Source: Thermoguttaceae bacterium
GTDB taxonomy: Bacteria; Planctomycetota; Planctomycetia; Pirellulales; Thermoguttaceae
Reading direction: 5' to 3'
DNA length: 64,000 nt
NCBI GenBank assembly: GCA_017408405.1
Contig: JAFQUP010000025.1
Coordinates: 1-64,000 of the forward strand
Shown here: one piece after another, positions 58,440 through 63,371 of the stretch
Position numbering within the stretch: the first letter of the stretch is position 1
How the letters are laid out: each line of letters begins with the position of its first letter
The notes under the pieces: model-generated
Database searches by the model: none
Told to the model about the DNA's origin: nothing
The model's input: only the letters and a program-made list of their open reading frames with translations
Program-made: the position numbers and the translations under genes

Positions 58440-58474
58440 AAATTTTCCTTAATTTTAGTCACCGAGTTTTTAAG

Positions 58475-58505
58475 ATCCGCATCATGAAAAGTGATGCGGA
58501 TTTTT
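58475..58505 (+). terminator. Strong intrinsic terminator after the isomerase gene
   Basis: ATCCGCATCA pairs with TGATGCGGAT, seven-nt loop, followed by TTTT. It marks the left edge of the four-gene unit at 58626-63221. A TTGACA at 58504-58509 with a CATATT 19 nt further on is a weak promoter candidate for that unit. Confidence 0.9.
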
Positions 58506-58625: not shown

Positions 58626-59498
58626 ATGAAAAAGAACTTTTCAAAAAATTTTCGATTAATGTTTATCGTACTCATTTTCACCAATCTTTCCACTGTCCAT
58701 GCGGAGACTTTATCCTCCGCGGAACCTTTAAGCCTCAATGCCGGTCCATCTATTTTTTGGATCATCATTCTTTTTTTGCTTTATCGATTCTTCACTTCCA
58801 AATCTGAATATGAAGATACTCACCAAAACAGGCAGGATGATTTTTTCAGTGATGAAAAGAAGCGCGAAACAATCATAAAAAATATCAAGCCCACGCACCG
58901 TAAAGTAAAGTATGATTCACGGCCGCAATCATCTTCTTCCCAAGACCATTACGAATCAAAATTTTCCGGGACGGAAACTGTTTCCTTAAATCTTCCCTCA
59001 ACTCATTTCCCATCAAATCCCGATACCGCGCGAAAGAACGCTCAGGAAACGCTCTTTTTTCAGAAGACCAATCCCCCCCATACTTGCCATCCTGAAAAAT
59101 CATCTTCTGAAAATATCCTCGCTCCAATTTACGAACTTGCCGGGCACGGCAAGCTGGAACTCCTGCGCAAAAAATTGGCCAAAGGAGCCAACATCAATGA
59201 GCAGGATCCGTTTTTTTATGAAACCGGCCTTCACCGGGCTGCGAAACGCGGAGACGCTGCCGCGGTCCAGCTTCTTCTGGAATCCGGAGCGGATGTCCGT
59301 TTCGTAACGCTCCCGTACGGCGAGACTCCGCTCCATTTTGCCGTTTCAGGACGCAATCCGCAAGTCATTCGCCTTCTCCTCCAATACGGCGCGAACCCAA
59401 ACGCGAAAGACTGCTTCGGACGCACTCCGGCACAATGTTCCCGATTTTACGGCGAGCTGAGCGAGATCTTTGAAAAAGCGGGTGCAAAAGTCCGCTAA
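58626..59498 (+). CDS. Membrane-anchored ankyrin repeat protein
   Basis: 290 aa. Residues ~1-28 are a signal-like or anchor segment (LMFIVLIFTNLSTVHAE) and ~41-56 a second hydrophobic span (SIFWIIILFLLYRFF). A polar Ser/Lys/His stretch (~60-160) leads to about three ankyrin units at ~165-290: APIYELAGHGKLELLRKKLAKGA, TGLHRAAKRGDAAAVQLLLESGADV, and TPLHFAVSGRNPQVIRLLLQYGANPNAKD. Ankyrin repeats bind other proteins. It is the first gene of a tight same-strand row with the GHKL ATPase 44 nt downstream, so it could sense or tether for that system; that is inference. Confidence 0.85.
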   Translation: MKKNFSKNFRLMFIVLIFTNLSTVHAETLSSAEPLSLNAGPSIFWIIILFLLYRFFTSKSEYEDTHQNRQDDFFSDEKKRETIIKNIKPTHRKVKYDSRPQSSSSQDHYESKFSGTETVSLNLPSTHFPSNPDTARKNAQETLFFQKTNPPHTCHPEKSSSENILAPIYELAGHGKLELLRKKLAKGANINEQDPFFYETGLHRAAKRGDAAAVQLLLESGADVRFVTLPYGETPLHFAVSGRNPQVIRLLLQYGANPNAKDCFGRTPAQCSRFYGELSEIFEKAGAKVR

Positions 59499-59542
59499 GA
59501 AAAAATTCCCCAAGACCTCAACAAAAAACGAATGACGCCGAA

Positions 59543-61612
59543 ATGAAAGAAATCGATCCCTTCCTGAATGGAGCAAGTGAAACAGCCGCCGGTTTTGAAA
59601 GCTGGGGAGAGTGGCTTTTTGCCCGCCAGCAGCAGTGTTCGGAGTGCACCGACCCCTACGATGACCGACATTTTCAAGATGATGTTGATGAAGACGATTA
59701 CTGCGGGATCCGTTCACTGGTCCGTGAGTCCATCCAAAACTCCCTCGATGCACAGGACCCGGAAAGTACGGAACCGGTTCGCGTTCTGTTTCGGATCGGC
59801 ACACTGAACTGGGATGAAGAAAATCAGAAACGGATCCATTCCCTTTTTGCCCGCCTGGAAGGACCGCTGAAAGAATTTGGATTCTCTCTGCAGGATGGAA
59901 TGCGCCAGCCAATGAAATATCTTGTCTGCGAGGACTTCAATACCATCGGGCTGAATGGTTCTGTGGACCGTATCATCCGGCAATCCGAACCGAATGCTGC
60001 CGAGGAGCACTTTTACTGGTTCTGGCGCAACTCCGGACGCAGCGGAAAACGCGGCGGCACTGGACGCTGGGGACTCGGGAAAACGGTCTTTAACGCGGCC
60101 AGTCTCGTCCATACACGATTTGGTCTGACGCTGAGAAAATCGGACCGAAAACGCTTTCTGATGGGGAAATCGGTCCTCAAGCTCCACGAATTTGAAGGAA
60201 ATCACTACGAGGCCTACGGTTTCTGGTGCCGCAAGGATGAAAATTGCGATCCGCAGGCTGACCGCATGCCGCTGCCGGTCGATGATGAGACCGCAATTCA
60301 GGAATTCAGCCAATTTTGGGGATTGACGCGAACAAATGATCCGGGCCTTTCGCTCGTCGTGCCGTTCCTCCAAAATATTTCCCCCAAACGCCTCGTTCAG
60401 CTGACGATCGGCAACTATTTCGTGAAGATACTCCAAGGGGAACTGACTGTTGAGATCCACGGTGAAGGAAAACCGATCTTGATCAACGCCCAAACAATGA
60501 ACTCGCTCGTGAAGAAATATTTCGACCCGAAAAAGGAAAATGGAAAAACGCTGAATCGCTTCATCTATTTTGCCGAAAATCTGGAACTTTTCCAAAAATG
60601 CCTTGGCGATAAAGTTTTGGTCCGAGAAATTGAGATCCCCGGCGAGAACGTTCCGAACGAGCCTCTTCTAAAGAATGCGATGGGGAGTGCGCTGACTTCC
60701 TGGCGTGAAGAATTCTTTCTCGGCAAGATCCTGGGTTTTCGGCTCCGTTTTCGTCTGCCTCATTCGGAAGAAAACGATCTTTGGGGGTGCGGTACGGTCT
60801 TTATTCAGAAAGACGCGAATGCAAAAAAAGATGATTTTTATTTCACCCGAAACGGCATGCTGCTTCCCAAGCCTAAAGGAGTTCCCGGTATCCGCGGACT
60901 GTTTCTTGCAGATGAATCTGATCCGGACAACCATCTCTCACGTTTTCTTGGCGACTCGGAAGAACCTGCGCATGAAAACTGGGAATCTCAGCGTCTGGAA
61001 GGAAAAAAATGGCAAAGAGGCTTCAAAGGACGTGTGGGGTTTGTCGCCAACATCGCCAAAACACTCAACAAGATCATTCAGTTTGAAAACCGCAAGGCAA
61101 ACCTGAACGCATTCGCCTCCTTTTTTCCGGATACGCGCAATATTTCCGCATCAGCAGGAAAAGCGAACAGTTCCATTGCCCGCAGTGAGGAGAAACTGAA
61201 AGAAGCTCCAGGCCCTTTGGTCCGCAAATGGTACGAGATCCAAAAACAAACGGGAGGATTCCGGATCTGCTCGACGGGAATGCCCATTCCGCCCAATGCC
61301 GCGCTGGAGATCGAAGCCGCATACTATGTCGAAAAAAGGAATCCGTTCCGGAACTGGAACGAACTGGACTTCAGTTTCTACAAAAAAATCAATCAAAAAA
61401 ACACGGCATCCTGCAGACTGAATGAAAAAACATTCCGTTTTTCTTCTGAAAACGCAAACTGCCTGATCCCCTCACTTGCGCAGGGAATCAAGGGAAATGT
61501 TTTGAAGATTCAGATCCTGCCGTCAGAGAAATTCAGCTTCAAGATCTCCGGATTCGATCCCAATCGCGACGTTTACGTCGATGTGCGCGACATTTCCAGC
61601 GAAGAGGAATAG
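59543..61612 (+). CDS. GHKL-fold ATPase-like protein of a candidate accessory system
   Basis: 689 aa. The N-terminal ~190 residues carry the GHKL (Hsp90/MutL-type) ATP-binding motifs in order: N box LVRESIQNSLDA (59-70, with the Glu and the Mg-binding Asn), a G1-like box CEDFNTIGLNG (129-139), and a G2-like loop GRWGLGKTVFNAAS (174-187). A possible metal pair CSEC is at 32-35. The remaining ~500 residues are mixed alpha/beta with no nuclease or helicase motif that I can see; they should hold the transducer domain and a partner-binding region. Standalone GHKL proteins of this type occur in restriction-like and antiphage operons. It is followed by two unfamiliar genes at 60 and 25 nt spacing. 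Confidence 0.82.
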   Translation: MKEIDPFLNGASETAAGFESWGEWLFARQQQCSECTDPYDDRHFQDDVDEDDYCGIRSLVRESIQNSLDAQDPESTEPVRVLFRIGTLNWDEENQKRIHSLFARLEGPLKEFGFSLQDGMRQPMKYLVCEDFNTIGLNGSVDRIIRQSEPNAAEEHFYWFWRNSGRSGKRGGTGRWGLGKTVFNAASLVHTRFGLTLRKSDRKRFLMGKSVLKLHEFEGNHYEAYGFWCRKDENCDPQADRMPLPVDDETAIQEFSQFWGLTRTNDPGLSLVVPFLQNISPKRLVQLTIGNYFVKILQGELTVEIHGEGKPILINAQTMNSLVKKYFDPKKENGKTLNRFIYFAENLELFQKCLGDKVLVREIEIPGENVPNEPLLKNAMGSALTSWREEFFLGKILGFRLRFRLPHSEENDLWGCGTVFIQKDANAKKDDFYFTRNGMLLPKPKGVPGIRGLFLADESDPDNHLSRFLGDSEEPAHENWESQRLEGKKWQRGFKGRVGFVANIAKTLNKIIQFENRKANLNAFASFFPDTRNISASAGKANSSIARSEEKLKEAPGPLVRKWYEIQKQTGGFRICSTGMPIPPNAALEIEAAYYVEKRNPFRNWNELDFSFYKKINQKNTASCRLNEKTFRFSSENANCLIPSLAQGIKGNVLKIQILPSEKFSFKISGFDPNRDVYVDVRDISSEEE

Positions 61613-61672
61613 ACCCTGAACGAAGTCAGCCTCCATTGAAATCAATGCCCGTAAAAATAAAACAGAAAAACG

Positions 61673-62440
61673 ATGAAAAAACGCATCAACAGCACTCAGC
61701 GCAAAAAAATCACGCGCGACAGGATCCAGATCACGGTCAGGGAAGACGCTTCCTTTGACCTGAAACTGGATCTTCGTGAAATGAAATTCCCCAGAGACGC
61801 CCGCATTATCGTTGAAGCGACCTGCGCAGGAAACGCGGAAGTAAAACGATTTGACGACATTGGGATCCTGAAAGATTTTCGCGGCGGGATCGTGACCTGC
61901 GAAAACACGCTTAGTCCGTTTCGTGCCAGTCATTTCACTTTTACTATTAAAATCGTTGACGTTCAGGAAGAAATCGGCAAGATCCTCGGTTTCGCAAAGA
62001 TCTCCGCTTCTAAAAAAGGCGGAGCGAGTCTGATTGCGCTTGAAGTGTCCGATCAGCTGGATCACATTCCATGGCAGCTTGACCTTAATGGAGATCTTCC
62101 GGCACTTCTGGTGAATGAGAAGTATTTGGGACTGGCCCGCCACCTGGAATCAGACCCGGTACTTCAGGCACTCATTCTGCCGGGAGTCTTTCGTGAAGTC
62201 ATTTTAAACGCCATCGAAGAACAGGATCCGGAGGACGATGAGCAGGTCTGGAATCATCTTCTCCGGCTGGCGGCAGAGATCCACCCTGAAAAGCTGCCGC
62301 TGCCTGAAGATGAAGACGAAGAGGAACAGAAACAGTGGGTGAAGGACGTCGTGAATGCATTCTGCGGGAAGAATCATTTTCTTGAGGTATTTCAGAAAAG
62401 CAGTTGGGCCGATGCGGAAGCAAATGACGATCAGCGGTGA
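61673..62440 (+). CDS. Unknown protein between the GHKL ATPase and DUF6339-like genes
   Basis: 255 aa. A basic start INSTQRKKITRDRIQITVRED leads into a beta-rich domain (~15-145; FDLKLDLREMKF, ARIIVEATCAGNAEVKRFD, FTFTIKIVDVQEE, GGASLIALEVSDQL). A helical half follows with an acidic loop PEDEDEEEQKQW at ~218-229. I have an uncertain memory of similar proteins beginning with an RITYTGRKRI-like motif in the same gene context; I treat that only as a hint. Cytoplasmic, no enzyme motif. Its place between two co-directional genes suggests a complex subunit. Confidence 0.75.
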   Translation: MKKRINSTQRKKITRDRIQITVREDASFDLKLDLREMKFPRDARIIVEATCAGNAEVKRFDDIGILKDFRGGIVTCENTLSPFRASHFTFTIKIVDVQEEIGKILGFAKISASKKGGASLIALEVSDQLDHIPWQLDLNGDLPALLVNEKYLGLARHLESDPVLQALILPGVFREVILNAIEEQDPEDDEQVWNHLLRLAAEIHPEKLPLPEDEDEEEQKQWVKDVVNAFCGKNHFLEVFQKSSWADAEANDDQR

Positions 62441-62465
62441 CGGATCGCGAAAGGAAACATGAAAA

Positions 62466-63221
62466 ATGAGACTCAGAAGACTGAATGAAGCAGGGATCGA
62501 CCGGTTTCGGAACCTGCTCGACGTGCTCCGTCAAACTCCGGAAATGGACATCTCGCACTGGCGGTCCGTACTGGAAGACCCGAAATTTACGGAACTGCAT
62601 GAAGAAGACGCCGATATGCCGGAGCAGAAATTCTCCACGCGCAGAGAATTTACTGAAATGTTCCGCGAACGCCTTGGACACTGCGATTCTCAGAGCTTTC
62701 AGAACGATGCCGGAATGTGGGCGTGGCTCTCCATGTTCTATTTCGACTCGGTCTGCCCGAAAAATGCCTGCGGAACAAGAAAGGTATTGAAGGACTACGC
62801 ATATATTCCAAAGGTAAAAGAACGAAATCAGGTCTTTCATTTACTTTACTCTGCCTGGCGGATCGGTGAGCTGACAGCAAAATATCAGTCTGAAAAATAC
62901 GCACAGATCTGGCTGGATGAAAACCTTTCCAATCTGGACAGCTTTACCGCCGAAACGATGAAACGCCTCTCCCTGACGCGCCTGCCCTGCTTTTTCGAAC
63001 TGATCTATCGCCTTTACTGGAACGAGCAGATGGACTGTCTGCGTCCCGGTATCTTGAAAACGCGAAAAGACGACGTCCGCTGCGGTGACCTGACGCACCG
63101 TCTGCCAAGTGTCCTGAATCAGCTTGCGGTCAATTATGATCTGCAAAATCTCACAGCCGAGCAGCTGATCCCGCTTCTTGGACCGGAGTTCCTTCCGGAT
63201 AAAGTCGGCACGAAGCCATAG
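62466..63221 (+). CDS. DUF6339-like protein
   Basis: 251 aa, with AAAGGAAA upstream of the ATG at 62466. It starts MRLRRLNEAGIDRFRNLLDVLR, has AGMWAWLSMFYFDSVCP at ~80-97, ERNQVFHLLYSAWRI at ~119-133, and ends HRLPSVLNQLAVNYDLQNLTAEQLIPLLGPEF. This layout resembles the DUF6339 family as I remember it, whose function is unknown but which is met in restriction-like and defence-type gene clusters. The protein is all-helical. It is the last gene of the row; the following gene has its own promoter at 63344. Confidence 0.7.
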   Translation: MRLRRLNEAGIDRFRNLLDVLRQTPEMDISHWRSVLEDPKFTELHEEDADMPEQKFSTRREFTEMFRERLGHCDSQSFQNDAGMWAWLSMFYFDSVCPKNACGTRKVLKDYAYIPKVKERNQVFHLLYSAWRIGELTAKYQSEKYAQIWLDENLSNLDSFTAETMKRLSLTRLPCFFELIYRLYWNEQMDCLRPGILKTRKDDVRCGDLTHRLPSVLNQLAVNYDLQNLTAEQLIPLLGPEFLPDKVGTKP

Positions 63222-63343: not shown

Positions 63344-63371
63344 TTGAAAAAAAGCGCAAGCCGGGTATAAT
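63344..63371 (+). promoter_or_regulatory. Sigma70-type promoter of the BtaA-like gene
   Basis: TTGAAA and TATAAT with 16 nt between them, about 80 nt before the ATG at 63453. It marks the right edge of the four-gene unit. Confidence 0.7.

What the first reader, a model, noticed from the sequence alone, without database searches (positions are those of the whole stretch)
58626..63221. Compact four-gene unit: ankyrin protein, GHKL ATPase, unknown protein, DUF6339-like protein
The four genes lie on one strand with gaps of 44, 60 and 25 nt, between a strong terminator (58475-58505) and the promoter of the next gene (63344). The 689-aa protein has the GHKL N, G1 and G2 boxes but is not HtpG, GyrB, MutL or a sensor kinase by length or remaining motifs. 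GHKL proteins of MutL/MORC relationship are known in restriction-like operons, and DUF6339-type proteins recur in such clusters in my recollection. No nuclease, methylase or helicase is visible, so the effector is either unrecognised within these proteins or coded elsewhere. This is the best candidate for an undescribed system.
Basis: partly seen in the sequence, partly recalled or inferred. Interest (0 to 1): 0.75.

Follow-up and report, generated by a model that had tools for sequence, protein, structure and literature searches.

The report
Three-gene GHKL module, PDC-M33 sibling
Three of the four genes form a conserved bacterial gene trio, built around a DNA-clamp-type ATPase (MutL/MORC kind) and two proteins of unknown function, that recurs in at least ten phyla, often beside DNA-methylating restriction systems, and is a distant, so far unlisted sibling of an untested anti-phage candidate called PDC-M33.

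Summary
The four open reading frames, their gaps and the hairpin are real. The evolutionary unit has three genes, not four: B (GHKL, 59543-61612), C (61673-62440) and D (62466-63221). Profile searches found B in 88 other loci; 76 hold B-C-D in the same order, spread over more than ten phyla. The ankyrin gene occurs in a congener without B-C-D and is not part of the unit. In 31 of the 88 loci a C5 DNA methylase, Vsr and/or EcoRII-type nuclease lies within about 8 kb. B carries the invariant ExxxH motif described for paraMORC2 ATPases and folds like Hsp90/MORC/SMCHD1/TopoVI-B/MutL modules. D is a confident helical model without a PDB match. The closest known thing is PADLOC's candidate PDC-M33 (GHKL - X - DUF6339): same gene order, same small upstream protein, same restriction-modification setting. 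B is homologous to PDC-M33A; D is a remote DUF6339 relative; C is probably X-like. The window's own clade has no linked methylase, and its genome has no C5 methylase. Verdict: new variant of a known but uncharacterised candidate kind, most likely an ATP-driven DNA clamp module serving restriction or defence. No anti-phage activity is shown; a housekeeping role is not excluded.

The parts
59543..61612 (+). gene B: 689-aa GHKL ATPase with transducer (S5-like) region, invariant ExxxH (E473/H477) and a strand-rich C-terminal region; paraMORC2-like
   Evidence: motif conservation; PDC-M33A partial hit 8e-21; hhalign to PDC-M33A-type GHKL 99.9% E 1e-32; predicted fold, Z 14-18.5 to Hsp90/SMCHD1/MORC/TopoVI-B/MutL
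61673..62440 (+). gene C: 255-aa unknown protein, beta-rich N-terminal region followed by helices; invariant N6-x-T8-x-R10
   Evidence: conserved after B in 80 of 88 loci; predicted strands then helices; weak and variable similarity to PDC-M33B
62466..63221 (+). gene D: 251-aa mostly helical protein of no known fold, remote DUF6339 relative
   Evidence: conserved after C; model pLDDT 94.1 with no PDB match; hhalign to DUF6339 74%, E 2.8e-5
58626..59498 (+). ankyrin-repeat gene: neighbour, NOT part of the module
   Evidence: Ank hits; present beside the TIM-barrel gene in congener G006, which lacks B-C-D
58472..58504 (+). hairpin terminator of the upstream gene
   Evidence: z -5.9
63344..63371 (+). 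promoter-like site of the next gene
   Evidence: 11 of 12 consensus bases; site count in the region equals chance

Best explanation
B-C-D is a horizontally moving three-protein module, a divergent sibling of the PDC-M33 candidate. B is an ATP-gated clamp (GHKL plus transducer) that dimerises on ATP and closes round DNA, as MutL, MORC and TopoVI-B do. C and D are adaptors docked to B: C by its strand-rich part, D by its helical domain, with D or the B-C-D complex deciding which DNA or which infection state is acted on. Beside C5 methylases, Vsr and EcoRII-type nucleases, the clamp couples the methylation-dependent self/non-self decision to a nuclease or another end effect. In the window's clade the module works without a linked methylase, either with nucleases coded elsewhere or by holding and compacting the DNA itself. 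Shown: gene set, order, homologies, GHKL motifs and predicted folds, restriction-modification linkage in about a third of loci, patchy distribution. Inferred: clamp action, complex formation, defence role. Unknown: trigger and effector.
For: 76 of 88 loci keep B-C-D in order, often with 4-nt overlaps. A C5 methylase lies nearby in 28 BCD-type loci, Vsr in about 15 loci and EcoRII-C in 8, against roughly one C5 methylase per genome in relatives, so about 0.4% would be expected in 16 kb. The restriction-linked label is clustered on the B tree (11 changes against 26.8 shuffled, 0 of 500 shuffles as low). ExxxH and GHKL motifs are nearly invariant. The fold matches Hsp90/SMCHD1/MORC/MutL/TopoVI-B. 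PDC-M33 has the same order and setting and shares a small upstream protein (E about 1e-24). Only 12 of 294 genomes of the phylum match the B profile, two of them being PDC-M33-type, and 2 of 7 congeners. B-C is 96-100% identical in DNA to G002 while flanking genes are 77-98%, suggesting recent exchange.
Against: No nuclease or other effector domain was recognised in B, C or D. The window genome (86% complete) has no C5 methylase. Flanks checked in the window's clade are ordinary genes such as SbcCD, oxidoreductase and glycosyltransferase, not defence islands. Some Planctomycetaceae keep B alone or B-C without D. No match was found in viral contigs, phages or plasmids for B, and only one plasmid for D.
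Confidence: 0.5

Rival explanations
1. B-C-D is the restriction enzyme itself: a three-subunit nuclease that cuts DNA left unmethylated by the partner C5 methylase, with a nuclease site that sequence profiles do not recognise. Methylase-free copies would then act on modified DNA (type IV-like) or be decaying.
For: Several loci hold methylase, Vsr, small protein and B-C-D with no other nuclease seen (L073, L097). Strongly conserved polar residues in B (R436, E473, H477) and D (D94, C97, H125, R212, D225, E241) could form a site.
Against: In 8 loci an EcoRII-C nuclease is already present, and PDC-M33 triads sit beside complete systems with AlwI-type or MutH/Sau3AI-type nucleases, so the triad need not be the cutter. 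No PD-(D/E)xK, HNH or PLD match was seen, and D has no PDB fold match.
Confidence: 0.2
2. In the methylase-free clades, the window's included, the module has been domesticated for genome upkeep (mismatch-repair-like or chromosome organisation), as Iyer et al. 2008 suggested for standalone paraMORC3.
For: None of the 14 rows of the window's clade has a linked methylase, Vsr or EcoRII; flanks are housekeeping genes; some Planctomycetaceae keep B alone in shared surroundings.
Against: Presence is patchy even within the genus (2 of 7 congeners). B-C looks recently exchanged between congeners. D differs from G002 with 37 replacement and 19 silent codon changes, unlike the flanking gene (17 and 58; Fisher p 8e-7).
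Confidence: 0.2
3. The unit is a four-gene operon in which the ankyrin protein is a partner or immunity protein.
For: Same strand with a 44-nt gap; the ankyrin gene is also next to B in G002.
Against: The ankyrin gene sits next to the TIM-barrel gene in G006, which lacks B-C-D; no ankyrin family recurs beside B-C-D among the neighbour clusters of the other loci; its N-terminal half differs between G000 and G002.
Confidence: 0.04

Closest known systems
PDC-M33 (PADLOC-DB candidate: PDC-M33A GHKL, B unknown, C DUF6339)
   Same: Gene order GHKL - about 280 aa protein - about 250 aa protein; the same ExPxHxxW motif in the GHKL protein; the same about 76-aa protein upstream; neighbours C5 methylase, Vsr and type II nucleases.
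   Different: Window B matches PDC-M33A only partly (8e-21); window C and D match no PDC-M33B or C model; D is related to DUF6339 only at profile-profile level; C is shorter and only weakly similar.
paraMORC2 GHKL ATPases in restriction-modification operons (Iyer, Abhiman and Aravind 2008, PMC2292703)
   Same: GHKL plus S5-type region with a strongly conserved ExxxH motif; neighbours are methylases and Vsr.
   Different: The paper's text describes SFII helicases and RE-fold nucleases as partners and does not mention a two-protein C-D partner set (figures not readable here); it places paraMORC2 mainly in cyanobacteria and Gram-positives.
Z1-type GHKL systems (Z1 helicase, PD-(D/E)xK, GHKL, DUF6339, C5 methylase, Vsr; read from sequence in locus L132)
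   Same: GHKL and DUF6339 genes in the same relative order, with C5 methylase.
   Different: B-C-D has no Z1 helicase nor PD-(D/E)xK gene.
VcSduA (paraMORC3, GHKL fused to a Shedu nuclease; PMC12137116)
   Same: GHKL ATPase of the paraMORC group with shown anti-phage activity.
   Different: One fused protein with a nuclease domain; B has no such domain.

Membership tests
PDC-M33 | component A: GHKL model PDLC04582 | tested here: inconclusive
   E 8.1e-21 but best stretch covers only profile positions 31-291 of 627; profile-profile 99.9%, E 1e-32
PDC-M33 | component B model PDLC04583 | tested here: not met
   no match of window C at E up to 10; profile-profile only 6-51%
PDC-M33 | component C models PDLC04584-04587 (DUF6339) | tested here: not met
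   no match of window D, nor of any of 36 D homologues to Pfam DUF6339; remote relation only (hhalign 74%)
paraMORC2 | GHKL N, G1, G2 boxes | tested here: met
   96-98% conserved in 91 rows
paraMORC2 | strongly conserved ExxxH in the C-terminal part of the S5 domain | tested here: met
   E473 and H477 in 100% of rows; definition from PMC2292703; not aligned to the paper's own sequences
DUF6339 (PF19866) | match above Pfam gathering score | tested here: not met
Type II restriction-modification system | linked DNA methylase | tested here: not met
   none in the unit; no PF00145 match in the 86%-complete genome; other methylase classes not searched genome-wide. Met in 28 homologous loci
HtpG/GyrB/MutL/histidine kinase housekeeping families | match to their Pfam or NCBIfam models | tested here: not met
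   no Pfam or NCBIfam family for B
MORC | GhXhhpXXRhl motif in the S5 domain | not tested
   not aligned to MORC sequences
anti-phage defence system | reduces phage infection | not testable with these tools
   needs experiment

The most novel reading that the evidence does not exclude
The methylase-free B-C-D clades are a bacterial counterpart of eukaryotic MORC silencing: a nuclease-free ATP clamp that topologically traps and compacts foreign DNA, steered by a fast-changing helical sensor (D) rather than by DNA methylation.
Probability: 0.1. Interest if true: 0.85.

Novelty: new variant of a known kind. Interest (0 to 1): 0.5.

Why it matters
It joins two orphan protein families with no Pfam match (C and D) to a paraMORC ATPase in a mobile module present in at least ten phyla, and shows that PDC-M33 is one branch of a larger superfamily whose core is ATPase, second protein and DUF6339-like protein, with a small upstream protein in part of it. 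If confirmed as defence, it would give a tractable setting in which to test how MutL/MORC-type clamps serve immunity, and whether they need a nuclease or a methylation mark at all.

Tried and rejected
Viral, phage and plasmid collections for B: no relatives; D in plasmids gave one Rhizobium hit. Nuclease identity of C or D: no Pfam, PADLOC, PHROG or PDB sequence match worth trusting, and D has no PDB fold match. First D-DUF6339 comparison with 2 sequences showed nothing, with 5 sequences E 0.076, with 12 sequences E 2.8e-5; the signal depends on alignment depth. C-X similarity moves between 6% and 51% with the alignment, so it is only probable. A first B-C read-through alignment was misplaced and dropped. 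The LmuB-like hit beside the L044/L029 triad is SbcC of an SbcCD pair, not Lamassu. Fibronectin-type hits of the B-C model could not be tied to residues, so the sandwich idea rests on predicted strands. A simple empty site was not found: in congeners the two flanking genes lie on separate contigs. Hypervariability of D residues 105-165 is seen only in the G000-G002 pair and one or two others, not in general.

Full report
Observation. The upstream hairpin is strong (z -5.9). Gene 1 is an ankyrin protein. Genes 2 to 4 (called B, C, D here) have no Pfam or NCBIfam family; B has one partial PADLOC hit, PDC-M33A at 8e-21.

Three genes, not four. A search of 60 relatives found B in G002 (99%), G004 (40%) and G022 (34%), each followed by C and D. 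A profile search of 294 genomes of the phylum found B in 12 (two of them PDC-M33-type) and D in 11, with D about 0.8 kb behind B wherever both occurred. A scan of bacterial and archaeal species gave 135 B relatives, 80 kept, in Planctomycetota, Pseudomonadota, Thermodesulfobacteriota, Myxococcota, Acidobacteriota, Chloroflexota, Nitrospirota, Nitrospinota, Verrucomicrobiota, Lentisphaerota, Actinomycetota and Bacteroidota. Counting non-duplicate BCD-type loci other than the window, 76 of 88 hold all three genes in order; three of the twelve exceptions end at a contig edge. The ankyrin gene sits beside the upstream TIM-barrel gene in G006, which has no B-C-D, and is a bystander.

Setting. Clustering of neighbours gave a C5 cytosine methylase in 29 loci (28 BCD-type), Vsr in 15, EcoRII-C nuclease in 8, a small about 76-aa protein and a PIN protein. 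Relatives of the window genome carry about one C5 methylase per genome, so about 0.4% would be expected in 16 kb; the observed share is near a third. This baseline comes from planctomycetes and is approximate for other phyla. On the B tree the restriction-linked label is clustered (11 changes against 26.8 shuffled). The window sits in a 14-row planctomycete clade with no linked methylase, Vsr or EcoRII; its sister L061 has them. The window genome has no PF00145 match, nor have G002 and G004, the other two carriers in the genus. Flanks in this clade are ordinary genes. A pooled PADLOC scan of 121 flank proteins of methylase-free loci did find some defence genes (type I-C CRISPR, type I and III methylases, HEC-01A), so a minority lie near defence genes.

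What B is. The N, G1 and G2 boxes are 96-98% conserved, and R436, E473, H477 and W480 are invariant in 91 rows. ExxxH is the mark that Iyer et al. 2008 gave for paraMORC2 (PMC2292703). A B-C read-through model (natural stops read as residues, pLDDT 83.6) places residues 30-514 on Hsp90, SMCHD1, MORC, TopoVI-B and MutL ATPase modules (Z 14-18.5). The C-terminal part of B and the first half of C are strand-rich; Foldseek also lists fibronectin-type domains, not tied to residues. D is a confident helical model (pLDDT 94.1) with no PDB match.

Closest known system. DUF6339 genes found in relatives and on plasmids belong to a parallel operon where the neighbourhood is readable: GHKL, a 280-330 aa protein, DUF6339, with a C5 methylase and Vsr or a type I or type II system beside most. 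PADLOC names these three PDC-M33A, B and C. PDC candidates come from a 'guilt-by-embedding' preprint that I know only through PMC12988326; no paper in the library names PDC-M33 or DUF6339. B and the PDC-M33A-type protein are homologous (99.9%, E 1e-32, ExPxHxxW included). D and DUF6339 are related at 74%, E 2.8e-5 over 170 columns, mismatched control 0.1%. C and PDC-M33B are probable only (6-51%). The small upstream protein is shared outright (E about 1e-24); it lies before 14 BCD loci, 11 of them restriction-linked, and was not found beside the window's B. B-C-D is therefore a sibling branch, not a member, of PDC-M33.

Mobility and change. Between the window and G002, B and C are 96-100% identical in DNA while flanking genes are 77-98%, and the middle of D drops to 78%. 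D has 37 replacement and 19 silent codon changes, against 17 and 58 in the flanking TIM gene (Fisher p 8e-7). This fits recent exchange and either diversifying selection or recombination in D; it rests on one pair.

Mechanism. Shown: gene set, order, homology, motifs, predicted folds, linkage. Following from family knowledge: GHKL-transducer proteins dimerise on ATP and clamp DNA. Inferred: C and D ride on B; the complex couples recognition of foreign DNA to an effect, served by neighbouring nucleases where present. Unknown: effector and trigger in methylase-free copies. A housekeeping role in these clades, where some Planctomycetaceae keep only B, is the main rival.

Noticed in passing
L073:7714-7941 and 13 other loci; L145:6010-6243, L147:4813-5040, L149:5006-5236, L152:4872-5102: A small about 76-aa protein (KFxxLAExRVxRxxKxIRLIGNLSNRxNYxYT...) precedes both B-C-D and PDC-M33 triads; the one member of each group tested has no PADLOC match, and the B-C-D one no Pfam match.
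   Followed up: partly
window 62780-62945 (D residues 105-160) against L028: D is a mosaic between two congeners: 57% amino-acid identity in the middle, 94% elsewhere, with an excess of replacement changes, while B-C next to it are nearly identical.
   Followed up: partly
L094, L104, L109, L120; L107, L110, L121: Planctomycetaceae loci where B persists alone, or with C but without D; in several the same TIM-barrel gene lies upstream.
   Followed up: partly
L061:2353-2982, L038, L068: A conserved about 210-aa unknown protein beside B in three restriction-linked loci, possibly an unrecognised nuclease.
   Followed up: no
L159:15672-17018 (G000 contig C94, about 71.7-73.0 kb, beyond the window): An HsdS-like fragment and an integrase-like gene (read by eye) about 8 kb downstream of D.
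   Followed up: no
L145 (Planococcus plasmid), L147 (Arthrobacter plasmid), L149 (Priestia plasmid): PDC-M33 triads sit beside complete restriction systems with AlwI-type, other type II or MutH/Sau3AI-type nucleases, and in L147 also Shedu: the triad looks like an add-on rather than the cutter.
   Followed up: partly
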